NCBI RefSeq assembly: GCF_022063185.1
Contig: NZ_CP091913.1
Location: forward strand, 5,991,141-6,055,140
Length of the DNA: 64,000 nucleotides
Reading direction: 5' to 3'
From: Nostoc sp. UHCC 0870
Lineage (GTDB): Bacteria; Cyanobacteriota; Cyanobacteriia; Cyanobacteriales; Nostocaceae
Positions 471-21,944 of the stretch are shown here, piece by piece. The notes under the pieces are model-generated. The model ran no database searches. It was not told where the DNA came from and saw only the letters and a program-made list of their open reading frames with translations. The first letter of the stretch is position 1. Each line of letters opens with the position of its first letter. The position numbers were made by a program, and so were the translations under genes.

Positions 471-501
471 TAGAATTTACCCCTTAGTCATTAGTAGTTT
501 T

Positions 502-577
502 TCCCCCATACCCCCATACCCCTACACCCCTATCCCCTACACCCCTACACCCCTACACCCTCACACCCCTATCCCCT
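502..577. repeat. C-rich low-complexity tract (CCCCTACA-like units)
   Basis: A run of CCCCATA, CCCCTACA and CCCCTAT units separates the two ABC genes. It enters the end of the downstream exporter gene, so the last residues of that protein (GDRGVRV) are encoded by repeat DNA. Similar tracts occur near 3085-3120 and 58400-58610. Confidence 0.8.
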
Positions 578-2379
578 TGTTTCTTAACTTGAGATTCTAA
601 AATCGCACCGTAGAGTGGGCTGGTTTGCATTAATTCCTCGTGAGTGCCTTGGGCTGCTAATCGTCCTTGATCTATCAGAAAAATGCGATCAGCATTTTTG
701 ACGGTACTAATCCGTTGAGCCACAACAAAAGTTACACAAGCTTTTTGGCGCATCATGTCATCTAATGCGGCTTGAATTTCGGCAGCCGTTTTCGCATCCA
801 CGGCTGAGGTACTGTCATCCAAAATCAGAATACTATAATCTGTGAGTAAAGTCCGAGCGATCGCAATCCGTTGTTTTTGTCCACCAGATAACCCAACGCC
901 CCGTTCACCCACAATCGTCTCATAACCATCGGGTAGACTGGTAATGAAATCATGGATTTGGGCAGTTTTGGCTACCTCAATCACCTCCTCTAGTAGTGCC
1001 TTGGGTTTGGCGTAAGCGATATTCTCACGCAGAGTACCAGAAAATAATGTAGTTTCCTGAAATACGATACCGATGTGTGTTCTCAAACTTTTCAGTGTAA
1101 AATCTCGCACATCCCGCCCATCAATGCGAATCGCGCCTCTGGTGACATCATAAAAGCGAGGAATCAGGTTCATAATCGTACTTTTGCCAGAACCTGTCAT
1201 CCCTAACACGGCAATTAGCTCTTTGGGCTTAGTTTCAAAAGATACATTCTTCAGGATTTCGGTAGTTGCGCCAGGATAGCGAAAGGAGACATTTTCAAAT
1301 GTGATTCTGCCGCCACAGGTATCAAAGGCGATCGCATCGGGGCGATCGCGAATATCGATTGTGGCATCTACCACCTCATAGATGCGTGCAGCTGAAGCTG
1401 CTGCTTGGGCGATCGCAGGTGCAGCAAAGCCTATCAGCAAAATTGGTTGGAAAATCAATACTAGATAGGAGTTAAACGCCACTAGTTCGCCAATGGAAAA
1501 GCTGTCCCTAATGATTTGCGCTCCTCCGTAGCCAAACACCGCCAGCGTCACCAAATTACTCAGCAAGAAGATAAACGGGAATGTACTACGGATGGCACGA
1601 ATTGTCTTCATGTTAGCCGTGACTAATTCATCATTGAGGCTGGTATAACGCGACTTTTCTGCCGATTCCCGCACGAAAGCTTTTACGACCCTGATACCAA
1701 TGAGATTCTCTTGCAATACAGCATTTAGCTCACTCAGTTTTTCTTGTACCTGTCGGAATATTTGGTCGTTACGGGTGACGAATCGCGCCATTAACCATGC
1801 GGATAAGGGTACTACCGTCAAGGAAATTAACGCCAGTTCCCAATTCATCACCAGCAACAGTACCGCAATCGCCACCAATGTCACGACTCCACCGATGACT
1901 TGAATTAAACTAGTGCCAATAAAGGTGCGGATTTGCTCAATATCATTGGTGACGCGGGTTAATAGTTGCGAAGTCTGTGACTGGTCATGATAGCTAAAAC
2001 TGAGATTTTGAATCTTGCTGAAAATCTTGTTGCGTAGGTCATAGGCAACGCCTTGAGAAGCTGATTCTGCTAAATAACTTTGACCAAAGTTAAATACACC
2101 ACGAGCGATCGCTGCGGCTACCATCCACGCAGCACTGTATATAACTATCTGTAAATCTTGCTTGACAATGCCCTGATCTATTGCCCAGCGAAATAGTTGA
2201 GGAGTCACCGCATTTGTAACTGTCAAGAGCAGTAGACTGATCAAAGCCCCCAGCGAAATCAATCCGTAATTCCTCAAACTCCCTAGCACACGCCAGATTG
2301 CTTGCATTGACGAATTTTCCTGGGGTTCTGATGGTGAAACCACTGGAATTTCTCCCTCATGTGTTTTTAAAATTATCAC
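553..2379 (-). CDS. ABC exporter, fused transmembrane and ATP-binding domains
   Basis: This 608-residue protein is a type IV ABC exporter half-transporter. Residues about 25-330 hold the six-helix membrane domain, including the coupling motif NLSFSYHDQSQTSQLLTRVT. Residues about 365-600 hold the nucleotide-binding domain: Walker A GMTGSGKST, signature LSGGQKQR, Walker B ILILDD followed by STSAVD, and an H-loop region that reads VAQRIST, where the usual switch histidine is replaced by glutamine. That replacement is common in the degenerate site of heterodimeric exporters, which fits pairing with the upstream half-transporter at 1-470. The start is a GTG at 2379; a later ATG at residue 25 is possible. 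Confidence 0.9.
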   Translation of the reverse strand: MIILKTHEGEIPVVSPSEPQENSSMQAIWRVLGSLRNYGLISLGALISLLLLTVTNAVTPQLFRWAIDQGIVKQDLQIVIYSAAWMVAAAIARGVFNFGQSYLAESASQGVAYDLRNKIFSKIQNLSFSYHDQSQTSQLLTRVTNDIEQIRTFIGTSLIQVIGGVVTLVAIAVLLLVMNWELALISLTVVPLSAWLMARFVTRNDQIFRQVQEKLSELNAVLQENLIGIRVVKAFVRESAEKSRYTSLNDELVTANMKTIRAIRSTFPFIFLLSNLVTLAVFGYGGAQIIRDSFSIGELVAFNSYLVLIFQPILLIGFAAPAIAQAAASAARIYEVVDATIDIRDRPDAIAFDTCGGRITFENVSFRYPGATTEILKNVSFETKPKELIAVLGMTGSGKSTIMNLIPRFYDVTRGAIRIDGRDVRDFTLKSLRTHIGIVFQETTLFSGTLRENIAYAKPKALLEEVIEVAKTAQIHDFITSLPDGYETIVGERGVGLSGGQKQRIAIARTLLTDYSILILDDSTSAVDAKTAAEIQAALDDMMRQKACVTFVVAQRISTVKNADRIFLIDQGRLAAQGTHEELMQTSPLYGAILESQVKKQGDRGVRV

Positions 2380-5160: not shown

Positions 5161-6012
5161 TCAGTCATAATTTTGACAACAACTTAAAAGCTTTTCTTTG
5201 ATCAGCGATCGCACATTGTCTGGCGATACAATCACACAATCGGGGGTATATTGCATGATTTCCCGAATAAACCAAAATGTATTAGGTACACGCCTCACAA
5301 CTCGCCGCACTCGTTGTTTGTCTGGTAGCCACTCATTGAAAATATCTTGGGGTTTGGCTTGATAAGCAAAAGCTAAGTTATTTAATAAGTGCATTTCCAC
5401 TTCGATTTGGTCTAAGTGCGATCGCCATTCACCGTCAATTTGCGTAACGGCAGCATCTAGTATGCGGTCTAAACGAAAACACCAATTATGGGTAAGTTCT
5501 GGGATATCCAAGTTTCCTGCTGTCTCCTCACACCAGCAATCAAGATACTCTCGCTTTTCGTGGGGGGTAATTTTGGCATAACGCACTGTAAAATTAAATA
5601 CTCGTTCGGCTGCATCTTGATAGGAAAGTTGAAAGGGTTGTTCACGGAGAATATAGCGGTCTATTTGTACCCGCCAAGCTGGGGGCGTGTTCCCTAGGAA
5701 GGCTTGAATTTCGTTCCGCAGTGGGGTTGATAATTCGCCGCGTTCTAGTAATAATTCAGCAATAATTTGTGCTTGTTCAACTTGTCCAATATCGGTTAAA
5801 GCACCAATACACCGATGTAAGGCGCGGATGCGCGATTCTTGCCAATCATTATTTTTACCAATGATTAACTGACGTTGTGCGATCGCTTTGATGAGTTTGG
5901 AGATATTGGGATCATCTCCCCACATCATACCGAACTCACGCGCGATCGCTTCTAGTTCGGCTTTATCTCGTTCTGTTACCGACAGGGTTATAGACTGACC
6001 TTTACGACTCAT
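5161..6012 (-). CDS. WYL-domain transcription regulator of the CRISPR-Cas locus
   Basis: The 283-residue protein begins with a ribbon-helix-helix-like segment (SITLSVTERDKAELEAIARE ... ISKLIKAIA, residues 6-45) and then has WYL-type ligand-sensing text (FNFTVRYAKITPHEKREYLDCWCEE, then a basic VRRVVRRVPNTFWFIREIM segment). A homologue of this arrangement beside the Synechocystis type I-D locus (Sll7009) represses that locus. Here the gene is divergent from cas3 across a 99-bp region holding two copies of ACGGACACT, so autoregulation and repression of cas3 are likely. The ligand is unknown; nucleic acid binding has been shown for some WYL proteins. Confidence 0.8.
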   Translation of the reverse strand: MSRKGQSITLSVTERDKAELEAIAREFGMMWGDDPNISKLIKAIAQRQLIIGKNNDWQESRIRALHRCIGALTDIGQVEQAQIIAELLLERGELSTPLRNEIQAFLGNTPPAWRVQIDRYILREQPFQLSYQDAAERVFNFTVRYAKITPHEKREYLDCWCEETAGNLDIPELTHNWCFRLDRILDAAVTQIDGEWRSHLDQIEVEMHLLNNLAFAYQAKPQDIFNEWLPDKQRVRRVVRRVPNTFWFIREIMQYTPDCVIVSPDNVRSLIKEKLLSCCQNYD

Positions 6013-6111
6013 GAAAGTATACGGACACTTTTATACTTATTTATCTTGCCAACTTTTATTTTGCGTGCCAATATAGTTTTTAACAACCAGTTACGGACAC
6101 TATTTAAGTTT
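6013..6111. promoter_or_regulatory. Divergent promoter region with paired ACGGACACT operators
   Basis: The nonamer ACGGACACT occurs at 6021-6029 and 6093-6101 in the same orientation, each followed by an AT-rich segment (TTTTATACTTAT and ATTTAAGTTTAT). One copy sits just ahead of the WYL gene start and the other about 10 bases ahead of the cas3 start. The starts are 72 bp apart, about seven helical turns, which suits a dimeric repressor that loops or co-occupies both sites. Confidence 0.55.
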
Positions 6112-8328
6112 ATGTCCGAAAATTACAAAATCACTCTCAAACCCGTTTATTCCCAAACAGTCCCCACACCTGATGGGGTGCAAATACCTAAAGATTGGTC
6201 ACTATCTTGGCATCAAGTCGCTACCTTAGAAGCACTACGCAATCCCAATATTGACGTAGTATTCAACACTGCTATGACAGGCGACGGTAAAAGTCTCGCC
6301 GGATACCTGGATATTTTGCAAAGACACTCTCCGGTTTTAGGGCTATATCCCACAAACGAACTCGCCAGAGATCAAGAAAAACAAATTAGAGGATATATTG
6401 ATAAATTTCAGCCTGAACATAAACCGCGTGTTAATCGTTTAAGTGGACAAGAATTAGAAATTTATGCTGAAGAAGAAAACTTAAAAAAAGGAGTAGCTTT
6501 AGAAACTCGCGCTGGGCAATCTGAAATTTTGCTGACCAATCCTGATATTTTTCACTATCTACACTATGGGGCATATTTACTTTATAAAGATAATCCAGAT
6601 AAACTCTGGAACAGAATAGATAAGCATTTCAATGTCATTCTTTTTGATGAATTCCACGTATTCCAAGCACCACAAATCGCCAGTGTAATCAACACAATGC
6701 TATTGATTCGTCACACCAACAGAAGTAAAAAGTTTTTATTTCTTTCTGCTACACCAAATCCGCAATTAATTGAGAGACTTAAATTAGTAGGTTTTCGCTG
6801 CCATGAAATCAACCCACTTGAAGAGGATAAATATCAATTTACTGATAATCTTACTAAATCTGAGCATCTAAAAACCCAATCTTGGCGAAAAGTTGTAGGG
6901 AAAATATCATTGCAGTTTATCTGTTTAGAATCTAAGCCTAAAGCTTCTGAAACTTGGTTAAAAGATAATGCAGCATTGATTTTAGATCATTTACAAAAGT
7001 ATCCAGGTAGCAAAGGTGCAATTATTCTTAGTTCTATTGCTGCTGTGAAACGATTAAAGGATTTTTTTACACCTTTTCTCCAGCCGTATAATTTCACAGT
7101 TGAAGAAAATACTGGTTTATCTGGAAAAAAAAGTAAAGAAGAATCGTTAAATGCTGATTTAGTTTTGGGAACTAGCACTATTGATGTGGGTGTTGATTTC
7201 ACAATCAATTTCTTGTTTTTTGAATCAGCCGATGCAGGTAATTTTATCCAGCGTTTAGGGAGACTAGGAAGACATGATGCTTATGAACGTAACGGACAGC
7301 AGATTAATTTTACTAACTTTACTGCTTATGCACTTGTCCCTGAATTTTTGGTGAAAAGGCTTTTTGAAAAAGATGAGAAGGATGAAGCACCACCATTGAA
7401 GTCAGGCGAAGTTTATGAACGTCCATTTTTTCATGATCAAATTAGGGATAAATACCGCAAAATTAATGATTTTACAGGCTATTACTTTAAATGGGGTGTT
7501 GTTCAATCTATGCGACTGGTTCGACAGTTGGGACATCCTAATATTAGACAGCAATATGCAGCAGGTAGTCAGGAAGCACTAAAGAAAGATTGTGAGATAG
7601 TTTTCAGCACTGATAAAAGACAAGCCAATCTTAAAGCAGCTTTTGTCCGTAGCAAAGAATGGGAAGAAAAATGGCACAAACTTTCAGGAACAGATAAGGG
7701 AAATCCGATTTTAGAGGAGGCTGTGAGTTTTCGGGGTAAGAGTCCTTTACTGTGTGGAATTTACGATAATACCGAGCAAAATGAGGCTGATAAGTTCAAA
7801 ACCTACGATTTACCAGGAATTCTCAGCAACTTGGAAATTGAACCGATGAAGGGGACAGAATTTGAACGGTTGCGACAAGTAACAGCAGAACGCGCAGATA
7901 CAACTATTCCCAAAGGCAGATTTAAAAACTGTCTAGGATTTATGAAATTACTTCGTTATCGAGAAGAAAGACTAGATTGGAAATTTACTTATCCTGGAGA
8001 CTTGAAACCCTTTGCTGATACTTGGGATGTCCAGGTGTTGTTGGGTATTCAGGTTTGGCAACCTGCAAACTATTGGATTAGTGAAATTAACAAGCAATTG
8101 AAGAAACAGGCATTAGTTAGTTATCTGCTGCCTTTTCCCTTAGAGAGAGTACGTCAGCAAGGACGATTGCCAATGCACTTTCAGATTTACCCAATTAGTG
8201 ACCAATATAGTGTTCTAGACAATACACCACCATACTGTATTGCCTTTGGGCAGTCTGCACTATTGCTAGACACCTTGACACATTGGTTTAAGAGTAAAGG
8301 GGATGAGATATGGATAACGCCGTGTTGA
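6112..8328 (+). CDS. cas3: CRISPR-associated helicase Cas3 (type I-D)
   Basis: This superfamily 2 helicase unwinds target DNA after Cascade binding. In type I-D the HD nuclease is carried by Cas10d instead. Motifs: Walker A NTAMTGDGKS (about residue 52), DEFH (about 179), LSATPN (about 211), GTSTIDVGVDF (about 350) and QRLGRLGRH (about 380). No HD domain is present. I choose ATG 6112 (MSENYKITL); the frame extends 22 codons upstream only to a TTG inside the operator region. The stop codon falls inside the first repeat of the degenerate CRISPR unit at 8324-8432. Confidence 0.93.
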   Translation: MSENYKITLKPVYSQTVPTPDGVQIPKDWSLSWHQVATLEALRNPNIDVVFNTAMTGDGKSLAGYLDILQRHSPVLGLYPTNELARDQEKQIRGYIDKFQPEHKPRVNRLSGQELEIYAEEENLKKGVALETRAGQSEILLTNPDIFHYLHYGAYLLYKDNPDKLWNRIDKHFNVILFDEFHVFQAPQIASVINTMLLIRHTNRSKKFLFLSATPNPQLIERLKLVGFRCHEINPLEEDKYQFTDNLTKSEHLKTQSWRKVVGKISLQFICLESKPKASETWLKDNAALILDHLQKYPGSKGAIILSSIAAVKRLKDFFTPFLQPYNFTVEENTGLSGKKSKEESLNADLVLGTSTIDVGVDFTINFLFFESADAGNFIQRLGRLGRHDAYERNGQQINFTNFTAYALVPEFLVKRLFEKDEKDEAPPLKSGEVYERPFFHDQIRDKYRKINDFTGYYFKWGVVQSMRLVRQLGHPNIRQQYAAGSQEALKKDCEIVFSTDKRQANLKAAFVRSKEWEEKWHKLSGTDKGNPILEEAVSFRGKSPLLCGIYDNTEQNEADKFKTYDLPGILSNLEIEPMKGTEFERLRQVTAERADTTIPKGRFKNCLGFMKLLRYREERLDWKFTYPGDLKPFADTWDVQVLLGIQVWQPANYWISEINKQLKKQALVSYLLPFPLERVRQQGRLPMHFQIYPISDQYSVLDNTPPYCIAFGQSALLLDTLTHWFKSKGDEIWITPC

Positions 8329-8432
8329 GATCCCTAATAGGGATTCGCTGCTTTGTCAGCAGGGTGGGTTCAGTATCAGTGAATTATGAGTCTGTGTTTC
8401 AATCCCTAAGAAGGGATTATTTAAAGACCCCA
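8324..8432 (-). ncRNA. Degenerate mini-CRISPR: CreA/CreR-like guide RNA gene
   Basis: Two repeat-like units at 8324-8360 and 8396-8432 start exactly 72 bp apart, equal to the main array unit (37 + 35). Read on the minus strand, the leader-side unit ends in GGGATTGAAAC as the main repeat does (12-base identity, 24 of 37 ungapped), so the 5' handle ATTGAAAC is intact. Its stem AATCCCT/AGGGATT is a perfect 7-bp hairpin with an altered loop. The distal unit (22 of 37) keeps a perfect stem ATCCCT/AGGGAT but has lost the handle, as terminal repeats do. A TATAGT -10 box on the minus strand (8435-8440) could start transcription at about 8428. The 35-nt spacer is 8361-8395. Orientation is opposite to the cas operon. 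Confidence 0.8.
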
Positions 8433-8481
8433 CCACTATAAGATAGCACGAAAGAGGCATTCACAGTCGAATTTACTTATG

Positions 8482-8519
8482 GTTACAGAATCATTATTCA
8501 CAGATATTGTAGTGATAGA
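8482..8519 (+). promoter_or_regulatory. Self-target of the mini-CRISPR spacer, with GTT PAM, over a putative promoter
   Basis: GTT (8482-8484) is followed by a 35-nt stretch that agrees with the mini-CRISPR spacer at 21 of the first 25 positions and 23 of 35 overall. Mismatches among the first 25 are at 6, 11, 18 and 23; pairing collapses beyond 25. GTN is the established I-D PAM. The site overlaps a possible promoter facing right: -35 TTACAG (8483-8488), 16-base spacer, -10 TATTGT (8505-8510). Cascade bound here would block transcription of the genes from 8604 onward. Confidence 0.75.
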
Positions 8520-8540
8520 GTGCTTTTTCGATAAAAATCA

Positions 8541-8567
8541 ATGGTCTCAGAAAAAATAGTATGCTAG
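8541..8567 (+). other. Possible mini-ORF downstream of the self-targeted promoter
   Basis: ATG at 8541 opens an eight-codon frame (MVSEKIVC, containing the rare-type codon ATA) in the leader between the self-targeted promoter and the first inserted gene. CreT toxins of known CreTA modules are small RNAs with mini-ORFs that sequester a rare tRNA. There is no good ribosome site, and an eight-codon frame is easily found by chance, so this is only a candidate. Confidence 0.2.
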
Positions 8568-8603
8568 GCTCTAAAGTGATCCTTTAAACCAGGAAACACT
8601 TAG

Positions 8604-8849
8604 ATGCAAAGCCAAAACTCTGACCCCTTAGACCAACTCCGTTATGCCATCAATGATCTGATTGATCGCATTAAAGTGCAGCAGCAGCACAATATCATTC
8701 AAGATAATCGACTCTCAGACCATGACCATAGAATTGAGGAAACGGAGGAATCAATCCAATTGTTATGCAGAAAATTTGCTCAATTCGACTATCTAATTGG
8801 GAGAAATCAGGAACTAGAAGAAAAAAACGATTTTTACTATAGAGATTGA
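8604..8849 (+). CDS. Small coiled-coil protein of unknown function, inserted in the cas operon
   Basis: The 81-residue protein is charged and helical throughout (LDQLRYAINDLIDRIKVQQQ, later LSDHDHRIEETEESIQLLCR), with heptad-like spacing suggesting a coiled coil. AGGA at 8591-8594 lies 9 bases before the ATG, so it is probably translated. I do not recognise a family. It is the first gene behind the self-targeted promoter and lies 12 bp before the DUF1016 nuclease gene, so the two may act together. Confidence 0.65.
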   Translation: MQSQNSDPLDQLRYAINDLIDRIKVQQQHNIIQDNRLSDHDHRIEETEESIQLLCRKFAQFDYLIGRNQELEEKNDFYYRD

Positions 8850-8861
8850 AATATTGTCATT

Positions 8862-9881
8862 ATGAGTAATTCTATTTCTGACGATTACAGAAATCTACTT
8901 ATGGAAGTACAACAACGGATTCGTTCAGCCCAGTACGAAGCATTAAAGGCAGTTAATCGGGAAATGATTAACCTGTATTGGGATATTGGGCAGATGATTG
9001 TTATCAAACAACAGGATGCTAGTTGGGGTAAATCAGTAGTAGAACAGCTAGCAAAAGATTTACAAGCAGAATTTCCTGGTATTAGCGGTTTTTCTGCTCG
9101 AAATATTTGGAATATGCGGAATTTTTACGTCACATATCGCCAAAATGAAAAACTGCAACCATTGGTTGCAGAAATTGGATGGACTCACAATTTGGTCATT
9201 TTAGAAAAGTGCAAAGATGACTTAGAACGAGAATTTTACATTAGAATGACTCGGAAGTTTGGTTGGACAAAAAACGTTTTAATTCACCAAATTGAAAATC
9301 AAACTTATGAAAAAACTCTGCTTAATCAAACTAATTTTGATCAAAGTATTTCAGCAGAGATAAGTAACCAATTAAAGCTAGCAGTTAAAGATGAATATAC
9401 TTTTGATTTTTTGGAACTAGCAGATGAACACAGCGAACGACAGCTAGAAGAGTCAATTTTAGGAAAAGTTCAACCATTTTTACAAGAAATGGGTGGAATA
9501 TTTGCCTTTATTGGTAGCCAATATCGTTTAGAAGTTGATGATGAAGAATATTTTATAGATATCCTATTATATCATCGCCGTTTAAAATGTTTGGTTGCAA
9601 TAGAATTAAAAATTGGTAAATTTTTACCTGAATATGTTGGCAAAATGCAGTTTTATTTAGCTGTTCTAGACAACACGGTAAAGCTACCAGAAGAAAATCC
9701 TTCTATTGGCATTATTCTTTGTAAATCCAAACAGAGAACTATTGTTGAATATGCACTAAAGGAATCTAATAAACCAATTGGTGTTGCAACTTACCAAATA
9801 GTTTCTAAAGTACCACAAGAATTAAAAAATCAACTTCCAGATCCAGAACAAGTTGCTAAACTCCTAGAAGGATTTGAATAA
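8862..9881 (+). CDS. DUF1016 (YhcG-like) PD-(D/E)XK nuclease, inserted in the cas operon
   Basis: This 339-residue protein has the DUF1016 N-terminal domain (about 8-150: LMEVQQRIRSAQYEALKAVN, LYWDIGQMIV, FPGISGFSARNIWNMRNFY) and a C-terminal PD-(D/E)XK nuclease domain (about 185-325). The catalytic residues are visible: D in EYFIDILLYHRRL and the E-x-K in VAIELKIGKF, followed by GKMQFYLAVLD. The family is found in restriction and defence islands and next to mobile DNA. Here it sits between cas3 and cas10d, where I-D operons normally have no gene. Its target is unknown. Candidates are a helper nuclease of interference or an abortive effector controlled by the nearby mini-CRISPR. Confidence 0.85.
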   Translation: MSNSISDDYRNLLMEVQQRIRSAQYEALKAVNREMINLYWDIGQMIVIKQQDASWGKSVVEQLAKDLQAEFPGISGFSARNIWNMRNFYVTYRQNEKLQPLVAEIGWTHNLVILEKCKDDLEREFYIRMTRKFGWTKNVLIHQIENQTYEKTLLNQTNFDQSISAEISNQLKLAVKDEYTFDFLELADEHSERQLEESILGKVQPFLQEMGGIFAFIGSQYRLEVDDEEYFIDILLYHRRLKCLVAIELKIGKFLPEYVGKMQFYLAVLDNTVKLPEENPSIGIILCKSKQRTIVEYALKESNKPIGVATYQIVSKVPQELKNQLPDPEQVAKLLEGFE

Positions 9882-9898: not shown

Positions 9899-10336
9899 AT
9901 GAATATAGATAAACTCACTTTAGCCAAAATAAAATTAATCAGAAAATATTACCAGACTTTAGAAAATTTTAGTTCTATTAGCCTTGATGATTTCTTGGAT
10001 GATTATTATCAACAACTTCTTGCAGAAAGACTCTTGCATCTAATAAATCAAGCCGCAGTAGATGTCAATCACCATATCTTATCAAAACTAAATCCTGGAA
10101 ATCATAATAATAACTTTGAATCTTTCACAGAGCTTACTAAATATAAAGTAATCACACCAGAATTAGCAAAGCAGTTAGCACCATCAGAAAGACTAATAAA
10201 ACATCTAGTTTATGAATATGATGAGATAGATCCAAGTCAAGTTTTCAGAGAAGTTAATTTTGCTTTACAGCAATATCCACTTTACCTTAGACAAATCAAC
10301 ACTTATTTAATTTCCTTGAATCAAGAACATGGCTAA
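9899..10336 (+). CDS. HepT-like HEPN protein (DUF86) with catalytic motif lost
   Basis: The 145-residue protein follows HepT toxins along its length: RLLHLINQAAVDVNHHILSK, FTELTKYKVITPELAKQLA, then VYEYDEIDPSQVF. In HepT the segment before the final EYD.ID reads RN..VH.Y, with R and H catalytic. Here the same stretch reads IKHLVYEY, so R, N and H are replaced by I, K and Y. It should be inactive as an RNase. The usual partner, MntA nucleotidyltransferase, is absent. It overlaps cas10d by 8 bp, so translation is coupled with the cas genes. It may be a structural or antitoxin-like partner. Confidence 0.75.
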   Translation: MNIDKLTLAKIKLIRKYYQTLENFSSISLDDFLDDYYQQLLAERLLHLINQAAVDVNHHILSKLNPGNHNNNFESFTELTKYKVITPELAKQLAPSERLIKHLVYEYDEIDPSQVFREVNFALQQYPLYLRQINTYLISLNQEHG

Positions 10337-13300
10337 AAAAACCAAGAAATCAGATGAATATCAACAACTATCACTCTTAGAAGCAGAAACAGAAAATGAT
10401 TCAACTTCCGAACTATTAGATGATGATTGGATGTCTGGAGATGATTCTGACTTTCAAGAAACATCTAATCTAAAAGTTGAAACACAATCAGCAGAACTCT
10501 TAACCCTAAAATTACTGCAAGATGCAATTAAATCAGAAAACGATGATGATTTAATTATGCAGGAATTTAGTGATTACGTTTTACCCAATCTTTTACGGGT
10601 AGCAGTTGGAGTTACAGCCAAAGGTGGCAAATTTTTTGATTATTTCGATGAAAAGAGAGAAAGGGAGATAGATGATTTCCACAAAAATAATTTAGGAAAA
10701 AGTCACAAAATAAAAGAGCCGAAAAAACTTAATCGAAGAAATGCAGGTGATCAATCTTTAAATACTCATTTACTCAATGGTTTACTACCAGCTAATTTAA
10801 TAGAACGTTGTCTAAATAAACTTGATACCACTGCAAAAAGGGTAATTCGAGAACAAGAAAGACGTTTATTAATTGCTGGGTTTATTTTACATGATTTTGA
10901 AAAGTTTGATTATCGGTTATTTCCTGAAATGCCAGATAATTATAAAGCAATCAGCCAAGATAAAGAGCAAGACATTCGCAAGTTATCTGTAGATGCCCAT
11001 CGCAAAATTATAGATATTATAGTCTGTGAATTGGGTCTTGATAAATTTGTTAGTCCTGATGAAGCAACAGCATGGCAAGAATATCGAGATGATTTGTTAT
11101 TTATTGCCTACAATGCCCAGCGTCGAAATGATACAAATCTCAATGTTTCTGAGTATGGTTTACAGCCAATAATTGATGATTATATCCTGATATGTCTTGC
11201 TGATTTAACTTGTTTAGCTGATTTACTTTCCTCAGTTATTAAGCATCCTCAAGATGCAGAACACCAGGGATTAAATGGAATTCTCCACAGCCTCAGTGAT
11301 GGACAATTAAAATTTACCTATCACAGTATTGCTGAAAATAGAGGGGTTTTAACTAATGTAGTTAACAATGCTTTAATTCAGGCTCATACCAGTCTGAATA
11401 CAGATGAGCATACCTACTATGAACCTTTGCTATATCTGCCTACGGGTGTAATTTATTTGGCTGAACGTCATGCACCTCCTATTTCACCGCAAGATTTACC
11501 AAACCGGGTAGTTGATAATATTAAATCACTTTGTGCAGGACAACTGCGCCTGAGACAAACGGGTTTTGGTAGAGATGGGAAAGGCATGAAATATGCCGAA
11601 TATTACAACTTATTTTTTGATTCTCCTGGCTTGATGCAGGTAGCTTTAGATGCAACTTTACGCATCTTAAACCCAAACAAAGTTTCAGTTGCTAAAAGTC
11701 GCAGTGATAATTTAATTAAATTTCAAAAACAAGGTGTTTTACCTGCTGACTATGACTTTAAATTTGATGATGATATCCGCATTGACCAAATAGCAGAGTT
11801 TGGTGATTTAGTTAGTCGCAAAATTTGGGATGAAACCGTAAATCGGATTGCGGATATTCGCAAGAAAAATAAAAATCTGTCAGAAGTACCAACTTTAGAG
11901 TTAACGCACAAAGTTGCAGAATTTTGGAACTTGACAGGATACTTACCCCAAATTAGAGAAATTCAGCATATCAACGAAAGTCTCAAAGAAAATAAATTAA
12001 AAGGCAATACTGGAGGCGTACCTTATGAATGGTACTATCTCGCAGCTAAATATTTAGAAAATCATCCTGGGATTGAGAGTGTTCGTGAAACTTGTCAGCA
12101 AGTGATTCAATATCTCACAGGCTTAATTTCACCCATCATTGCACAGTACGAATTACCCGATGGTTGGGATGATTTAAGACTTTGGGTATCACGCGTTGTG
12201 ATGTTACCCAATACGAATCGAGAAACATCAGATAAAACTCAAGTCGATACATTTTTAGCTGAGTTGAATAATTATAATGCTGCCAAAAAACCAGGACGGG
12301 GAAAACAATTAATTTGCTCAATCTCCCATTCTGCTTATACAGTAACAGAACAGATGGAATCGGCAGTTTTATTTACGCCTCAAGTTTATACAAACAAGCA
12401 AATGTTAGGAGGTTCTAACGCTAAACGCAATATCTCTAGTATTGCAGGTGTGGAGATGATGCTGAGGCAAATTTTAATGAATCAAACTCAAGCCGTGGGT
12501 AAACGATTTGAAGATGGGAAATATCGCTATCTCTATTTTTACCCGACTTATTATTTCACACCAGAAACCAATAAGTTTTTACAGAAAGCCTACAACGGTA
12601 TTGCTCAAACTCGTTTTGATACGAGCATCCGTAACCACTTTATTAGTAAAGATTTACAAGCAAACTTAGAACGAGAAAATTATCAAAGTGTAGATGCTTT
12701 CTTAATTGATGAAAACTTAGAACGTGATAAAGACCGTACATTTAAACTGTCTTATCCCGAAGACCAACCTTTAACATTTTACTTCATGGCATTACCGCCA
12801 GGACGAGATAGCAGCGATACCGAATCTTGGATAATGCCTAGTTGGTTAGCGTTTGCTTTCCCAATGATTTTAGATGTTAAAACTGTGGTGTCTGAGTCAC
12901 CAATTCCGCCTTTTAATGATGGTGCTGAATTTGAAGAAAGCGTTTTTCTGGATAGTGCGCCTCATGCTTTCCGTGCATTAGTCAGACGCGATCGCTTTCG
13001 TCTAGATTACATCCTGGAAGGTTGGGATGAAAACGGCATCCAATACCCCGCACCTCTAAATGTGCTTACCGCCGCCTATGCAATTCACCTTGATGTGAAT
13101 GCTAGACAAGGTAAATCTGGTTATGATGCCAACTGGGGTAGATTTACTGAACTGGCAAAGGATTTTGAAACCAGTCCTTTGTACGTCTTTTATTACCTCA
13201 ATCGTTGGGTGCGTAACCAAGGAGTAGAAACAGCACGCATCGAGAAAATTAGGCTTTATGCCTATCATTTTTATCCTTGTTTTGATCCTTATGTGCAGTA

Positions 13301-13790
13301 TGACATGAATACGAAAACGTTGATTGTGAAAGAAGAATCAAGTCTGAATCATCCTAAGAATTTAACAGAGCTTTATCGCCGCTTTTATCGGGCAAATAAG
13401 CGTTATAATCCTAAATCTAACGCTGTGTTAAAACCTATTGATATTGCGGCGGAAACTATCCTTAAAGCTGAGTCGAGTGTATTTCAAGGAGAAACCTTAG
13501 TTGTAGGAGTAGCAGCAGAAGTTTTCAAACTCATGGATCGCGTTCATGCTTCCACTGCTGAAGGACGCTGGGTAATGAGTAAACGGGAAGAAGAAAGACA
13601 AGCTGTGTTGGATTTTGCTAAGTATTTTGTCATCGAAGTATTTGAGAAAGCATTTGCAGGCGATCGCGCACGTTTAGCAGGTCGTCAACTCAATTTAATT
13701 CGAGACACTTGTGAGTTTCTTTACCGTCTAGAAGATGACAAAGAAAACGCAGGTAAAGACAATAAGCCTACCGAATCTGATGATGCTTAA
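10329..13790 (+). CDS. cas10d: Type I-D Cascade large subunit Cas10d (Csc3) with HD nuclease
   Basis: At 1153 residues this is the I-D large subunit. It reads the PAM, nucleates Cascade and carries the HD nuclease that cuts target DNA with Cas3. The HD motif is in RLLIAGFILHDFEKFDYRLF (about 180-200), with an earlier histidine in SLNTHLLNGLL. No GGDD cyclase motif is visible, as expected for Cas10d. The C-terminal 160 residues correspond to the small-subunit-like domain. The gene overlaps the HEPN gene by 8 bp and precedes csc2 by 46 bp. Confidence 0.93.
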   Translation: MAKKTKKSDEYQQLSLLEAETENDSTSELLDDDWMSGDDSDFQETSNLKVETQSAELLTLKLLQDAIKSENDDDLIMQEFSDYVLPNLLRVAVGVTAKGGKFFDYFDEKREREIDDFHKNNLGKSHKIKEPKKLNRRNAGDQSLNTHLLNGLLPANLIERCLNKLDTTAKRVIREQERRLLIAGFILHDFEKFDYRLFPEMPDNYKAISQDKEQDIRKLSVDAHRKIIDIIVCELGLDKFVSPDEATAWQEYRDDLLFIAYNAQRRNDTNLNVSEYGLQPIIDDYILICLADLTCLADLLSSVIKHPQDAEHQGLNGILHSLSDGQLKFTYHSIAENRGVLTNVVNNALIQAHTSLNTDEHTYYEPLLYLPTGVIYLAERHAPPISPQDLPNRVVDNIKSLCAGQLRLRQTGFGRDGKGMKYAEYYNLFFDSPGLMQVALDATLRILNPNKVSVAKSRSDNLIKFQKQGVLPADYDFKFDDDIRIDQIAEFGDLVSRKIWDETVNRIADIRKKNKNLSEVPTLELTHKVAEFWNLTGYLPQIREIQHINESLKENKLKGNTGGVPYEWYYLAAKYLENHPGIESVRETCQQVIQYLTGLISPIIAQYELPDGWDDLRLWVSRVVMLPNTNRETSDKTQVDTFLAELNNYNAAKKPGRGKQLICSISHSAYTVTEQMESAVLFTPQVYTNKQMLGGSNAKRNISSIAGVEMMLRQILMNQTQAVGKRFEDGKYRYLYFYPTYYFTPETNKFLQKAYNGIAQTRFDTSIRNHFISKDLQANLERENYQSVDAFLIDENLERDKDRTFKLSYPEDQPLTFYFMALPPGRDSSDTESWIMPSWLAFAFPMILDVKTVVSESPIPPFNDGAEFEESVFLDSAPHAFRALVRRDRFRLDYILEGWDENGIQYPAPLNVLTAAYAIHLDVNARQGKSGYDANWGRFTELAKDFETSPLYVFYYLNRWVRNQGVETARIEKIRLYAYHFYPCFDPYVQYDMNTKTLIVKEESSLNHPKNLTELYRRFYRANKRYNPKSNAVLKPIDIAAETILKAESSVFQGETLVVGVAAEVFKLMDRVHASTAEGRWVMSKREEERQAVLDFAKYFVIEVFEKAFAGDRARLAGRQLNLIRDTCEFLYRLEDDKENAGKDNKPTESDDA
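13305..13790 (+). CDS. Possible internally translated small subunit Cas11d
   Basis: In the Synechocystis type I-D system a separate small subunit is translated from inside cas10d. Here an in-frame ATG at 13305 (MNTKTLIVKEESS, residue 993 of Cas10d) would give a helical protein of about 161 residues, the right size. No strong ribosome site is visible before it, and other nearby starts (GTG at 13327) are possible. This rests mainly on family knowledge. Confidence 0.35.
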   Translation: MNTKTLIVKEESSLNHPKNLTELYRRFYRANKRYNPKSNAVLKPIDIAAETILKAESSVFQGETLVVGVAAEVFKLMDRVHASTAEGRWVMSKREEERQAVLDFAKYFVIEVFEKAFAGDRARLAGRQLNLIRDTCEFLYRLEDDKENAGKDNKPTESDDA

Positions 13791-13836: not shown

Positions 13837-14853
13837 ATGGCATTGCTCAAAACTCTTGATTCACAACTATTCCAAGCAGAAATTCCTTACAAACCAATGG
13901 GTAAATATGCCCACTTTCTCACAATTCGCATCACTGAATCTTACCCTTTATTTCAGACAGACGGAGAATTAAATAAAGCACGAGTCAGAGCCGGGGTTAA
14001 AGATAAGACAACAATTAGCCGTTTGTCAATGTTCAAGCGTAAACAATCTACCCCAGAACGTTTAGTAGGGAGGGAATTACTTCGCAAATATGAATTAGTC
14101 AAACCTGAAGAATGCGAATATAACGTCAACTTTGCAATGGATAATCCTGACTGTATTATTTACGGTTTTGCGATTGGTGATTCTGGTTCAGAAAAATCAA
14201 AAGTTGTAGTAGACACAGCATTTTCAATTACTGCGTTCGATGAATCTCACGAAACCTTTACTTTGAATGCTCCCTTTGAAAATGGGACAATGGCTTCTAA
14301 GGGTGAAAATGGTTCTAAACCTGGTGAAGTTACTAGTCGAATTAATCAACAAGACCACATCAGACCCCAAGTTTTCTTTCCTAGTATCGTCACCCTAAAA
14401 GACCCCACAGAAGCTAGCTTCCTTTACGTGTTTAATAACATCTTGCGGACACGTCATTATGGAGCGCAAACAACCCGTACAGGTAGAGTGAGAAATGAGT
14501 TAATTGGGGTTGTATTTGCTGATGGAGAAATTACTAGTAATTTACGCTGGACTCAAGCAATATATGACCAGATGAAAGCTAATAATTCTTTAAATTCTCC
14601 TGATCCTCTGGATGAAGATGAAGTAATTACTGCTGCTAAAAATGCCATTGAAACTTTGATGTCTGAAGAATTTATTGTACATACTGATTTTATTGGTGAT
14701 GCTTTTGAACCTCTATTAAAAGAAGTGAAGAACCTCACTACTAGCGAAACAGGAATTAAAAGTATTTTACAAAAAGCTGATGCTGAAGCTAAAGCTTATG
14801 CTAATAAACACATTAGTAAAAAGAAAACTGCTGCGAAAGCGGGGAAAGAGTGA
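13837..14853 (+). CDS. csc2: Type I-D Cascade backbone Csc2 (Cas7d)
   Basis: This 338-residue Cas7-family protein forms the helical backbone that coats the crRNA. Recognisable text includes MGKYAHFLTIRITESYPLFQ, RHYGAQTTRTGRVRNELIGVVFADGE and a lysine/alanine-rich tail. A GGAG ribosome site precedes the ATG. Its stop overlaps the start of csc1 (TGATG). Confidence 0.93.
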   Translation: MALLKTLDSQLFQAEIPYKPMGKYAHFLTIRITESYPLFQTDGELNKARVRAGVKDKTTISRLSMFKRKQSTPERLVGRELLRKYELVKPEECEYNVNFAMDNPDCIIYGFAIGDSGSEKSKVVVDTAFSITAFDESHETFTLNAPFENGTMASKGENGSKPGEVTSRINQQDHIRPQVFFPSIVTLKDPTEASFLYVFNNILRTRHYGAQTTRTGRVRNELIGVVFADGEITSNLRWTQAIYDQMKANNSLNSPDPLDEDEVITAAKNAIETLMSEEFIVHTDFIGDAFEPLLKEVKNLTTSETGIKSILQKADAEAKAYANKHISKKKTAAKAGKE

Positions 14854-15560
14854 TGGTATTGATTTACCGTTGTCAATTAGAATTGCATGACAGCCTTTAT
14901 TATGCCACGCGTGAAATTGGGCGATTGTATGAAACAGAGCCAATCATTCACAATTATGCTCTCTGTTATGCACTGGGTTTAGTTGATAGCCAAATCTATT
15001 GTACTACCGTGGCTGAAGAACATTCCTATCGCTATTTCTGTCCTGAACAAGTACCAAAATATGAAGAGCATTTAACGCCGCTTAATCAACAGGGTATTTA
15101 TGTTACTCCTGCATTAGCTATTAGTCATTCTGCAATTCTCAACACATGGAAGTATGCTAACAATAACTATCATGTGGAGATGGAGAAAACGCAGAAAAAC
15201 ATCCCTAGTTTTGGGAGAGCCAAAGAAATAGCACCAGAAAGTCAATTTGAGTTTTTTGTAATTTCTCAAAAAGAACTCAAATTACCAAAATGGCTTCGCT
15301 TGGGTAAGTGGATGAGTAAAGCTGAGTTGACAGTTGAGCAATTACCTAAACCTCAAAATGCTGAAGGTTTATTCACCTGCAAACATCCCTTAAATCCTTT
15401 AGATGTGATGTTTTCTAATCAAGTGATTAGCTACGATGTGGTGAATATGCCTCCAGTTAGTTTAATTCAGAATGTGCAAATGCGAGGGCAATATTACCAA
15501 TTTACTGAGATGAAAGACATCAAAATTCCGGCTCGAATGGCTTATCATTTTCGTAGTTAA
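14853..15560 (+). CDS. csc1: Type I-D Cascade subunit Csc1 (Cas5d)
   Basis: The 235-residue Cas5-family protein caps the 5' handle of the crRNA. The start MVLIYRCQLELHDSLYYATREIG is typical of Csc1. I choose the ATG at 14853, which overlaps the csc2 stop by one base and has GGGGAAAG ahead of it, rather than the GTG at 14850. The C-terminal part has ARMAYHFR near the end. Confidence 0.9.
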   Translation: MVLIYRCQLELHDSLYYATREIGRLYETEPIIHNYALCYALGLVDSQIYCTTVAEEHSYRYFCPEQVPKYEEHLTPLNQQGIYVTPALAISHSAILNTWKYANNNYHVEMEKTQKNIPSFGRAKEIAPESQFEFFVISQKELKLPKWLRLGKWMSKAELTVEQLPKPQNAEGLFTCKHPLNPLDVMFSNQVISYDVVNMPPVSLIQNVQMRGQYYQFTEMKDIKIPARMAYHFRS

Positions 15561-16343: not shown

Positions 16344-17162
16344 ATGCCTCATAGCCTGATTCTCAACCTACTTCCCCAGTCTCCCATCTACCCCCAATTC
16401 CTCACAGGTAGACACTACCATGCTTTATTCCTCACCCTAGTTAGTTCTGTTGATCCAGCCTTGGGAGAATATCTGCATAACTCCAAGGCGGATAAAGCCT
16501 TTACCCTCTCACCCCTACAAATACAACAACGAACAAAACCAGATCACTACAGTTTGCAATTAAGTCATCAAAAACCCATCCCGGCTGGTACTCCCTGCTG
16601 GTGGCGCGTTTCCCTGCTTGATGACACCCTATTTAGTAAGCTAACTCCACTGTGGCTAAATCTCAACCCTGAACACCCTTGGCATTTAGGTTCAGCCAAC
16701 TTGTATATTACCAGCATCCAAGGTACACCCCAATCAATACAACCCTGGGCGAACGCTTGCAGCTATGCTCAATTATATGAACAAGCCAGCGAGAGCGATC
16801 GCGCCTTAAACTTCCTCTTCGCCACCCCCGTAGCCTTCCGCCAAGGGACATACGATACATTTTTACCCACTAGAGAATGTATCTTTAACAGTCTTCTCAG
16901 CCGTTGGCAAAAATATAGCGGAATTGAACTCAGCAATATATCATTTGACTCAATTTATCCCAGTTGTTTTAATATTAATACCGAAATAGTTCGCAACTAC
17001 GACAGCAAATTTATAGGGTGCATTGGTGAAATTGGCTATCGAATTTTAGGAGAGATTGAACCTAATACAATTAAACAAATTAACGCTTTAGCTGACTTTG
17101 CCTTATACGCAGGAATCGGGCGAAAAACAACAATGGGAATGGGAATGGTCAGAAGGAGATAG
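16344..17162 (+). CDS. cas6: CRISPR RNA endonuclease Cas6
   Basis: This 272-residue RAMP-family nuclease cuts the repeat hairpin to release crRNAs with the 8-nt handle. The N-terminal ferredoxin-like fold starts SLILNLLPQSPIYPQFLTGR; the C-terminal glycine-rich loop is AGIGRKTTMGMGMVRRR. A likely general-base histidine is among HYHALF near residue 25. It is separated from the upstream gene by a MITE, so its expression may be partly independent of the effector genes. Confidence 0.88.
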   Translation: MPHSLILNLLPQSPIYPQFLTGRHYHALFLTLVSSVDPALGEYLHNSKADKAFTLSPLQIQQRTKPDHYSLQLSHQKPIPAGTPCWWRVSLLDDTLFSKLTPLWLNLNPEHPWHLGSANLYITSIQGTPQSIQPWANACSYAQLYEQASESDRALNFLFATPVAFRQGTYDTFLPTRECIFNSLLSRWQKYSGIELSNISFDSIYPSCFNINTEIVRNYDSKFIGCIGEIGYRILGEIEPNTIKQINALADFALYAGIGRKTTMGMGMVRRR

Positions 17163-19509: not shown

Positions 19510-21944
19510 ATTGCAATTTCATTAACTCCCTATCAGGGATTGAAACAAGGGTGAGAAAATTTATTTTGATTTTAAAAATGGATTGCAATTTCATTAACTC
19601 CCTATCAGGGATTGAAACTCTGGCATCTTGAATAGAATCATATTCGTAACTAGATTGCAATTTCATTAACTCCCTATCAGGGATTGAAACAAAAGCCTTC
19701 GTAGAGATGCTACAACCCTAAAGTAATTGCAATTTCATTAACTCCCTATCAGGGATTGAAACAGCCCAATTTGAACGGCTAGACGACTGAAGCTAATTGC
19801 AATTTCATTAACTCCCTATCAGGGATTGAAACGCATTGTGAGAGTGGGGGGCAATTTGGAATTGAAATTGCAATTTCATTAACTCCCTATCAGGGATTGA
19901 AACGTTGGGGATGATGAAGCAGACAGGACAGCAGCATCATTGCAATTTCATTAACTCCCTATCAGGGATTGAAACATTGGAAACGCTTAGGGTCTAGATG
20001 TAATTCGCTATTGCAATTTCATTAACTCCCTATCAGGGATTGAAACCAGGCGAATCAAGAAGCAAGATATCAGGATTTACGATTGCAATTTCATTAACTC
20101 CCTATCAGGGATTGAAACAAAGTACAGGTAAGGTGGGGAGTTGGGGAGAGTGATTGCAATTTCATTAACTCCCTATCAGGGATTGAAACATTAAGTCGAT
20201 GCTGTAAGTCTGGTAACTCTGGAATTGCAATTTCATTAACTCCCTATCAGGGATTGAAACAGGAGTACAAGTACAACCAGGATTATAAATAATATTAATT
20301 GCAATTTCATTAACTCCCTATCAGGGATTGAAACGCGACGGATTCATCTATGGGTGCTGAAGCCCGGTATTGCAATTTCATTAACTCCCTATCAGGGATT
20401 GAAACAATTCCTTCAATTATCAGGGGGAACAAGCATCTTATTGCAATTTCATTAACTCCCTATCAGGGATTGAAACAATATAGATTCCCCTATACTGCCA
20501 CGCAAATCATGAAATTGCAATTTCATTAACTCCCTATCAGGGATTGAAACGAGAATTCTTAACTGACGCTACTTGTTGTCCAATATTGCAATTTCATTAA
20601 CTCCCTATCAGGGATTGAAACAACGCATTGAGAAAGCCTACCAATTATTTTTTAAAATTGCAATTTCATTAACTCCCTATCAGGGATTGAAACTGGGAAT
20701 TTTCTAATCGAAACATTCCACCCCCAGATTGCAATTTCATTAACTCCCTATCAGGGATTGAAACGATACCTTAATTCGCGACATCGTATCAGAAGCATCA
20801 TTGCAATTTCATTAACTCCCTATCAGGGATTGAAACATCTGCTGCTACTTTCTTGATGAAGCAATATAAGCGTATTGCAATTTCATTAACTCCCTATCAG
20901 GGATTGAAACGTGGTTGCGTGACAGGTGGAGATGCAATTGTTTGATGGGCTAATTGCAATTTCATTAACTCCCTATCAGGGATTGAAACTGACCATTTGC
21001 TTATTAAGCTTGATCATTGCTGCATTGCAATTTCATTAACTCCCTATCAGGGATTGAAACACTAGCCCCTGATTAGGTAACGACGAAGTAACGATAAAAT
21101 CGCATTGCAATTTCATTAACTCCCTATCAGGGATTGAAACGGATCTATCCCTAAGCGATGCAATTGAACCATTGCATTGCAATTTCATTAACTCCCTATC
21201 AGGGATTGAAACCCCCAGCCGCACCCAAGACAATCATATTTAGGCGGCGGGATTGCAATTTCATTAACTCCCTATCAGGGATTGAAACTGAGATTTTCCC
21301 GCTTGGTGGTTTCGTACAAGTCAGCATTGCAATTTCATTAACTCCCTATCAGGGATTGAAACGGGCGAGTGCCTTGGGCATCCACCATAAAACCACGCTA
21401 TTGCAATTTCATTAACTCCCTATCAGGGATTGAAACATCAACGTGGCGTGCTAAGTCTTGGTAGTTATCGAAGCTATTGCAATTTCATTAACTCCCTATC
21501 AGGGATTGAAACTAAATACTTGCGGTAGTTTAATAGAGGTAATACATTGCAATTTCATTAACTCCCTATCAGGGATTGAAACAGGTAGAACCTTCATCAA
21601 CTCTTCAACATCCTCAAGTATTGCAATTTCATTAACTCCCTATCAGGGATTGAAACTGGGTAGCCCGATCGCGGACACAATGCGGTAAAATTGCAATTTC
21701 ATTAACTCCCTATCAGGGATTGAAACAATTAGAATCTCTTGATACTGAACTGTATTTGCGGTTATTGCAATTTCATTAACTCCCTATCAGGGATTGAAAC
21801 ACAAAAAAGATTACCTGAAAGAATGGCAGTTAAATTGCAATTTCATTAACTCCCTATCAGGGATTGAAACAGAGAATAAATATTGGTATTACCGTTATTG
21901 CTGGATGATTGCAATTTCATTAACTCCCTATTAGGGATTATTGC
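19510..21944 (+). CRISPR. Type I-D CRISPR array, 34 repeats and 33 spacers
   Basis: The 37-bp repeat starts ATTGCAATTTCATTAACTCC and ends AGGGATTGAAAC, with stem TCCCT-ATC-AGGGA. I counted 33 apparently identical copies plus a degenerate last copy at 21908-21944, which has TATTAGGG and has lost GAAAC. This fixes the leader at the left. Spacers are 33-43 nt, mostly 34-37; two are long (42 nt at 20911-20952 and 43 nt at 21061-21103). I saw no duplicated spacers. Confidence 0.98.

What the first reader, a model, noticed from the sequence alone, without database searches (positions are those of the whole stretch)
8324..8519. CreA/CreR-like mini-CRISPR in a type I-D cas operon that targets a promoter 90 bp away
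Seen: two degenerate repeats with starts exactly 72 bp apart, the array unit length; intact handle ATTGAAAC in the leader-side repeat, hairpin stems kept in both; a 35-nt spacer (8361-8395, read on minus) that matches 8485-8519 at 21 of the first 25 positions; GTT directly 5' of that site. Mismatches at 6, 11, 18 and 23 lie at or next to every sixth position, which type I Cascade flips out of pairing, and complementarity is lost after 25. Known: I-D uses GTN PAMs; CreA and CreR RNAs are degenerate crRNAs that guide Cascade to repress nearby promoters because partial pairing avoids Cas3 cleavage. Inference: this is such a regulator for a type I-D system, with divergent orientation and new cargo.
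Basis: partly seen in the sequence, partly recalled or inferred. Interest (0 to 1): 0.95.

Follow-up and report, generated by a model that had tools for sequence, protein, structure and literature searches.

The report
RNA-guided switch inside CRISPR locus
A tiny two-repeat CRISPR unit behind the cas3 gene of cyanobacterial type I-D systems appears to make a guide RNA that turns the CRISPR complex into a repressor of the small gene next door, and the pattern recurs with many different guide-and-target pairs in the cyanobacteria examined.

Summary
A degenerate mini-CRISPR (8324-8432, minus) carries a spacer matching a GTT-flanked site 89 bp away at 21 of 25 positions. It is no one-off: 76 of 109 Nostocaceae type I-D loci with a measurable cas3'-cas10d gap carry such a unit. 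With other cyanobacteria added, 89 of 103 units match a nearby GT-PAM site, in 12 spacer families. Pairing is kept at 1-5, 7-11 and about 13-16 but low at 6, 12 and 18, Cascade's flip-out rhythm; plain unweighted matching shows this too. Unit and small cargo gene come and go together (74 of 76 against 1 of 33). That fits pairing with the cargo mRNA. Transcription, repression, toxicity and RNA targeting are untested. Such mini-arrays are known from other subtypes, so this is a new variant.

The parts
6046..8328 (+). cas3' helicase gene; its stop codon lies inside the degenerate downstream repeat
   Evidence: Pfam DEAD and Cas3-like_C_2; coordinates
8324..8360 (-). psi-R2, degenerate trailer-side repeat (handle ATCTCAAC)
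   Evidence: a repeat-like hit lies within about 13 bases of the cas3' stop in 63 of 108 loci measured
8361..8395 (-). 35-nt spacer of the guide RNA
8396..8432 (-). psi-R1, leader-side repeat with intact handle ATTGAAAC and a 4-nt loop
8482..8484 (+). PAM GTT
   Evidence: in relatives GTT or GTC in 61 of 65 loci with at least 13/17 when no PAM was required (ties went to GT), and in all 83 non-redundant pairs when GT was required
8485..8509 (+). target site (21 of 25 match; pairing conserved among relatives to about position 17)
8604..8849 (+). ORF81, first gene behind the target; small protein of cargo family C6, coiled-coil-like by eye
   Evidence: all 9 strong hits in 217 genomes (window included) lie in I-D loci with the unit
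8862..9881 (+). DUF1016/YhcG nuclease-like gene, 12 bp behind ORF81
   Evidence: Pfam DUF1016_N, YhcG_C; PADLOC PDC-S02
9899..10336 (+). HepT-like gene without an MNT partner and without the RX4HXY motif
10329..13790 (+). cas10d, overlaps hepT
   Evidence: PADLOC Cas10_Id, E 0
13837..14853 (+). csc2 (Cas7d)
   Evidence: Pfam Csc2 E 1.6e-123
14850..15560 (+). csc1 (Cas5d)
   Evidence: PADLOC Cas5d E 3.4e-111
16344..17162 (+). cas6
   Evidence: Pfam CRISPR_Cas6_N E 2e-77
19510..21870 (+). main CRISPR array, 33 repeats by Rfam, 34 by k-mer count

Best explanation
The unit is read on the minus strand into a crRNA-like RNA (handle ATTGAAAC plus spacer), cut by Cas6 and loaded into type I-D Cascade (Cas10d, Csc2, Csc1). 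Guided by it, Cascade binds the GTT-flanked site in front of ORF81 through about 17 nt of pairing with mismatches tolerated at or near flipped-out bases. Because pairing ends early, the site is bound and not cut, so ORF81 and the genes tightly packed behind it (yhcG, hepT, cas10d) are repressed. When Cascade is lost, inhibited or diverted by other crRNAs, repression lifts. The conserved purpose is most likely to keep a small guard gene silent while Cascade works (CreTA/CrePA-like). Here it would also throttle cas10d (CreR-like). Shown: anatomy, conservation, covariation, co-loss with cargo. Inferred: transcription, processing, binding, repression, guard function.
For: Match beyond chance. Of 76 Nostocaceae units 66 have a GT-PAM site within 450 nt (92 sites) against 10 such sites in the other 1.41 Mb of the same loci, 0.23 expected near. 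Plain 17-nt matching without position weights: 65 of 76 own pairs reach 13, about 2% of 4650 foreign pairs do; family-averaged matches .97 .99 .94 .90 .87 at 1-5.31 at 6.93 .96 .99 .84 .79 at 7-11.47 at 12.85 .99 .85 .66 .55 at 13-17.27 at 18. A further 27 units, by record title mostly other cyanobacteria: 22 reach 13 (4.4% of 634 foreign pairs), with .55 at 6.41 at 12.18 at 18. In 3 units without an ungapped site a 1-nt deletion at 5/6 or 11/12 restores 14/15; 312 controls reach at most 12. Unit and cargo co-occur (Fisher p 5e-24) and change together on a Csc2 tree: 11 supported independent contrasts, 9.7 the same way, 0 opposite, 1.3 without difference. CreA in haloarchaea needs nucleotides 1-5 and 7-11 and not 6 or 12 (PMC8501985, passages). 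I-D Cascade binds GTT-PAM DNA (PMC9123187, passages).
Against: No RNA, binding or expression data. No recognisable sigma-70 promoter at the site; a -35/-10 pair with the PAM in the -35 place scores only about 8/12. Position 11, mostly paired elsewhere, is mismatched here. G092 keeps the guide but has lost the target. Five of 103 units have no recognisable site of either kind: L069, L078, L162, L241, L252. No test shows the cargo is harmful. Locus counts are not independent. The cargo families were picked from ORFs recurring behind targets, so the 74 of 76 is partly by construction.
Confidence: 0.85

Rival explanations
1. Pure CreR-type autoregulator: the unit exists to throttle cas10d and the effector genes, and the small cargo gene is incidental.
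For: In the window ORF81, yhcG, hepT and cas10d follow with gaps of at most 17 bp, so one promoter could serve all. Some loci have only the unit, one small ORF and cas10d, e.g. L157, L168, L178.
Against: Of 33 Nostocaceae loci without psi-R1 only 1 has an intact cargo gene, of 76 with it 74 do, although all these loci have cas10d; the two traits change together on the tree. Seven loci keep only cargo fragments.
Confidence: 0.3
2. Relic: two leftover repeats of a decayed inverted array; the spacer-target match is coincidence or a self-targeting accident.
For: Repeats are degenerate, and short leftovers of arrays are common (general knowledge).
Against: Same strand, and in most loci with a unit the same place at the cas3' stop, from Nostoc to Pseudanabaena; covariation with 6-nt rhythm; 0 of 4000 shuffles reach 21/25.
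Confidence: 0.02
3. The target acts on the guide's own minus-strand promoter (negative feedback on the guide) more than on the cargo.
For: The guide's promoter would have to lie between psi-R1 and the target, about 80 bp here; -10-like sequences were seen there by eye in several families, not tested.
Against: Does not explain co-loss with the cargo gene or the second site in cargo transcripts.
Confidence: 0.1
4. Delocalised homing guide of a type I-D CRISPR-associated transposon.
For: Type I-D CRISPR-guided Tn7-like transposons of cyanobacteria exist (title seen in the reference list of PMC10651486).
Against: No transposition gene among the ORFs scanned around the locus (not the whole window); Cas10d has an HD pair and cas3', cas1, cas2 and cas4 are present; the target is beside the guide.
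Confidence: 0.01

Closest known systems
CreTA (CRISPR-regulated toxin-antitoxin) and its CreA RNA
   Same: Two degenerate repeats around one spacer, partial complementarity to a neighbouring promoter region, pairing at 1-5 and 7-11 with 6 and 12 free (PMC8501985, passages).
   Different: Type I-D; the neighbour is a conserved small protein-coding gene, not a toxic RNA; pairing reaches about 17; in many loci a second transcript site. The term I-D does not occur in the main text of the two CreTA papers searched.
CreR, crRNA-like autoregulators of cas operons
   Same: Cascade-bound degenerate crRNA against a promoter in the cas locus (PMC12737573, passages); in the window the site heads the cargo-cas10d gene block.
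   Different: Presence tracks the cargo gene and not the cas genes; the term I-D does not occur in that review.
CrePA (protein toxin, CreA antitoxin)
   Same: Protein-coding neighbour held down by Cascade-CreA (PMC12737573, section 10).
   Different: No KilA-N domain found in the cargo representatives scanned; toxicity untested; six cargo families instead of one.
Mini-arrays of Shmakov et al. 2023 (Nucleic Acids Res 51:8150)
   Same: As recalled: conserved two-repeat mini-arrays, many subtypes, spacers partly complementary to promoters of cas or cargo genes such as toxin-antitoxins.
   Different: Paper not held, so whether it lists these I-D units could not be checked.

Membership tests
Type I-D CRISPR-Cas locus | cas10d, csc2, csc1, separate cas3', cas6 and adaptation genes with an array | tested here: met
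CreA-type guide | two degenerate repeats flanking one spacer outside the array, handle kept in the leader-side repeat | tested here: met
CreA-type guide | PAM-flanked neighbour site with seed pairing at 1-5 and 7-11, free at 6 and 12 | tested here: met
   in the window itself 9 of the 10 seed positions (11 mismatched, 12 matched)
CreA-type guide | transcribed, Cas6-processed RNA bound to Cascade | not testable with these tools
   no RNA data at hand
CreTA | the repressed gene is a toxic RNA (CreT) | not tested
   the neighbour is a conserved 81-aa ORF, which argues for a protein product; RNA toxicity not assayed
CrePA | repressed protein toxin, typically with a KilA-N domain | tested here: not met
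   no KilA-N match in the window's ORF81 or the other cargo representatives; toxicity itself not testable here
CreR | target lies in the promoter of the cognate cas operon | tested here: inconclusive
   the gene block behind the target includes cas10d with gaps of at most 17 bp, but no promoter was found and presence tracks cargo

The most novel reading that the evidence does not exclude
One guide, two kinds of target. In 55 of 103 units, spacer positions 9-33 pair, mostly without a GT PAM and with bases 12, 18, 24 and 30 left out, with the transcript of the guard gene: before the ORF in C9 and C17 loci, behind it in C3 and C36 loci. In 49 of these 55 the 5' part of the same spacer (1-17, PAM GTT/GTC) also pairs with DNA in front of that gene. 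Type I-D Cascade, which binds ssRNA and is thought to cut it, would thus lock the gene twice, at transcription and at the mRNA. The window's own family (C6) has only the DNA site.
Probability: 0.55. Interest if true: 0.95.

Novelty: new variant of a known kind. Interest (0 to 1): 0.87.

Why it matters
It extends Cascade-guided gene control to type I-D, with a natural experiment of 83 non-redundant guide-target pairs whose 6-nt mismatch rhythm reads Cascade geometry directly from evolution. It suggests that cyanobacterial CRISPR loci widely carry guard genes held silent by the CRISPR complex, predicts which genes switch on when CRISPR is disabled, and points to a single guide that may address DNA and RNA at once. 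Each claim can be tested with a reporter.

Tried and rejected
Decayed-array reading: rejected on covariation. Phage or plasmid origin: no match of the spacer in phages or of 8300-8620 in plasmids; handle plus spacer pattern not in viral contigs. A sigma-70 promoter at the target: not found; the family comparison gave only a weak hint in three C6 spacer families. The second site as a degenerate second guide with its own repeat: handle-like flanks beat the 95th percentile of shuffles in only 14 of 54, and by eye its 5' end does not fit the promoter site of L143, so not adopted. A first test of the second site on positions 18-35 alone was not significant (minus strand own 4 of 103, foreign 4 of 827 at 14/18), because flip positions dilute it; the paired-position test was designed after seeing the profile. 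A distant target for the C17 spacer in G156: no convincing site. Known RNA family at the second site: only CRISPR-DR5 repeats in 5 sources. Beta-clamp-like motifs as a common cargo theme: strict motif in 12 of 13 C9 and 2 of 5 C17 proteins, none in C6, C3, C36 and RAMA (RAMA 3 of 5 by a loose motif), so no general explanation. No structure prediction was run.

Bias to know: the sites counted were selected on the paired positions with GT required, which inflates the contrast with 6, 12 and 18; others (plain 17-nt matching; plain match over 6-33) do not have that bias. Rows dropped: of the Csc2 places listed I fetched 120 loci; 108 of them plus the window had a usable cas3'-cas10d gap. Of 80 loci, 27 new units remained after removing loci without a unit and duplicates of the first set. 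L216, counted as cargo without psi-R1, is such a duplicate and does carry psi-R1. L252 among the 103 is probably a false unit (psi-R1 2.6 kb from cas3').
Full report
What is there. The window lies in a 7.17-Mb genome whose relatives the tool groups as one family of cyanobacteria, by record titles Nostocaceae. A complete type I-D locus runs from a WCX-domain gene, likely a WYL-type regulator (5161-6012, minus), and cas3' (6046-8328) through ORF81, yhcG, hepT, cas10d, csc2, csc1, a 2OG-oxygenase gene, cas6, cas4, cas1 and cas2 to an array at 19510-21870 with 33 (Rfam) or 34 (k-mer count) repeats. Between cas3' and ORF81, on the minus strand, sit two degenerate copies of the array repeat with handles 72 bp apart. 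The spacer between them matches a site 89 bp away at 21 of 25 positions, with GTT directly before it. None of 4000 shuffles of the gap reaches that match. PAM plus matched positions occur once without mismatch in the whole genome.

Relatives. A DNA search of 217 genomes of the family gave near full-length relatives of this gap in seven other genomes and a guide-only relative in one. Because 180 of 217 genomes have Csc2, I fetched 120 csc2 loci; 108 of them and the window have a usable cas3'-cas10d gap. A repeat-like hit on the minus strand is present in 83 of these 109 and a leader-side repeat meeting the handle criterion in 76; shuffled gaps gave about 12 hits per full set. A repeat-like hit lies at the cas3' stop in 63 of 108 loci measured, with or without a leader-side repeat. 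A scan of named genomes (80 loci kept of 143) shows the same layout in Pseudanabaena, Microcoleus, Lyngbya, Petrachloros and others; in Microcystis only the leader-side repeat was detected.

Spacer and target covary. With plain matching over positions 1-17, no PAM requirement (ties went to GT) and no position weights, 65 of 76 own spacer-region pairs reach 13/17, against about 2% of 4650 foreign pairs; 61 of the 65 have GTT or GTC before the site. Family-averaged matching over 10 families falls from .87-.99 at 1-5 to .31 at 6, is .79-.99 at 7-11.47 at 12.55-.99 at 13-17 and .27 at 18. With PAM and paired-position criteria, 66 of 76 loci have one or two sites within 450 nt (92 sites); the other 1.41 Mb of the same loci hold 10. 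Twenty-six loci have two sites, often about 24-27 bp apart on one strand, or inverted. In the second set 22 of 27 units reach 13/17 (4.4% of 634 foreign pairs), with .55 at 6.41 at 12 and .18 at 18; 18 of the 22 have GTT or GTC. Combined and selected on PAM and paired positions, 89 of 103 units have a site; the 83 non-redundant pairs fall into 12 families, with .97-1.00 at 1-5.38 at 6.82-1.00 at 7-11.37 at 12.71-.96 at 13-16.48 at 17 and .13 at 18. Within families, spacer changes are matched by target changes at many paired positions and hardly at 6, 12 and 18; positions 10, 14, 15 and 17 show few compensated changes and 5 about half. In three units the site fits only with a one-base deletion, and it falls at 5/6 or 11/12 each time.

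This resembles the rule established for haloarchaeal CreA, where nucleotides 1-5 and 7-11 are needed and 6 and 12 are free (PMC8501985, passages). [quoted passage not shown] The comparative data here put the free positions at 6, 12 and 18, so that numbering needs checking.

What it controls. Behind the target lies a small gene from one of six families that separate by BLAST clustering: C6 (ORF81 and relatives), C3 (mostly 65-78 aa, PADLOC HTH model E 4e-27), C9 (mostly 62-78 aa), C17, C36 and, in loci with cas10d of about 46% identity, a protein matching Pfam RAMA at E 3e-7 but below Pfam's cut-off. Spacer families mostly go with cargo families: TTCC with C9 in 13 of 13, the TCTATTGCC/ACTGTTGC spacers with RAMA in 10 of 10, ACAGA/ACACA with C6 in 12 of 12; the large lumped family goes with C3 in 22 of 29. 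Of 76 loci with the unit 74 have an intact cargo gene; of 33 without it 1 does and 7 keep fragments (Fisher p 5e-24). Outside the first set, 20 of 27 with the unit and 1 of 11 without, that one being a duplicate that does carry the unit. On a Csc2 tree of 109 loci the unit changes state 20 times; in 11 supported independent contrasts cargo goes the same way 9.7 times on average, never the other way. G146 has lost psi-R1, spacer, target and most of ORF81 together and kept psi-R2. ORF81 has 9 strong hits in 217 genomes, all in I-D loci with the unit; two weaker hits lie in I-D loci with units and three weak ones elsewhere. The guide therefore most likely serves the cargo gene first. In the window ORF81 is packed against yhcG, hepT and cas10d, so the same site may also control effector supply.

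A second site. Looking for targets of units without a DNA site, I found that much of many spacers matches another place, on the opposite strand, so that the cargo transcript would be complementary to the guide. With 17 of 21 paired positions required (9-11, 13-17, 19-23, 25-29, 31-33), 55 of 103 loci have one such site within 900 nt, none on the other strand there, and none on either strand in the remaining 1.88 Mb of the same loci. With plain matching over 6-33 instead (57 of 103 own against 13 of 642 foreign pairs), family-averaged matching dips at 6, 12, 18, 24 and 30 (.31.47.16.24.24) between blocks of .63-.98 from 9 to 33. Covariation is strong at 11, 16, 17, 20 and 28, near zero at the five flip positions, and also weak at 10, 14, 21, 26, 31 and 33. 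The flank is usually ANT (41 of 55) and GTT once. The site lies before the cargo ORF in C9 and C17 loci and behind it in C3 and C36 loci. Forty-nine units have both sites, six only this one, 43 only the DNA site (three of the DNA sites counted here being the gapped ones), five neither. By cargo, in the Nostocaceae set: C3 20 of 23, C9 12 of 14, C36 2 of 2, C17 3 of 3, C6 0 of 22, RAMA 0 of 10, none 0 of 2; one C6-like and one RAMA locus passed only the looser test. Type I-D Cascade binds ssRNA, and Cas7d is proposed to cut it (PMC9123187 and PMC10212523, passages). Pairing with the cargo mRNA inside Cascade is the simplest account of the rhythm. The window's locus has no such site.

How it most likely works. 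Guide RNA from the unit loads into Cascade; Cascade sits on the DNA site without cutting, because pairing stops early, and keeps the small gene silent. Loss, inhibition or saturation of Cascade releases it. Whether the product is a toxin (guard) or a regulator is open. C9 proteins carry two beta-clamp-binding-like motifs, QL(E/V)LF and QLELNLF-like (12 of 13 with a strict motif against 16 of 1100 background proteins); the consensus QL(S/D)LF and the clamp-binding toxin SocB are described in PMC9690074 (passages). This does not extend to ORF81.

Novelty. CreTA, CreR and CrePA are described for other subtypes (PMC8501985 and PMC9458426, passages; PMC12737573, passages and one section), and a 2023 survey of mini-arrays exists that I could not read (its content is recalled). 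In nine paper searches, eight of them on this topic (one search was on clamp toxins), I saw no type I-D case in the listings, but the library lacks most subscription papers. I therefore call it a new variant of a known kind; the two-target guide, if confirmed, would be more than that.

Noticed in passing
L143, L084, L102, L114 and 51 further loci; examples shown: Mostly PAM-less second match of the guide (positions 9-33) on the strand that makes the cargo transcript complementary to it, with 6-nt mismatch rhythm; 55 of 103 loci.
   Followed up: yes
C9 cargo proteins, e.g. L107, 457-648 from the cas3' end: Small proteins with two beta-sliding-clamp-binding-like motifs (QL(E/V)LF and QLELNLF-like); two of five C17 proteins carry QLSLPL or QLELPL. 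Could be replication-clamp inhibitors.
   Followed up: partly
window 9899-10336: Orphan HepT without MNT partner has lost the RX4HXY motif; so have both other orphan HepTs (L065, L118), while 22 of 23 HepTs with an MNT gene in the gap keep it (the MNT label and the motif are recalled).
   Followed up: partly
L169, L179: C-terminal remnant of the RAMA-like cargo gene right behind cas3', with no guide detected; looks like the footprint of a deletion.
   Followed up: partly
window 15569-16192: 2OG-Fe(II) oxygenase gene between csc1 and cas6, matching PADLOC's CRISPR-associated 2OG model at E 2e-82.
   Followed up: no
cas3'-cas10d gaps of the fetched Nostocaceae loci: The gap often holds toxin-antitoxin-like genes in changing combinations: DUF433 with a PIN-like gene (DUF5615, recalled), DUF1016, MNT-HepT.
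   Followed up: partly
window 495-585: Short array of 8-bp CCCCTACA-like tandem repeats.
   Followed up: no
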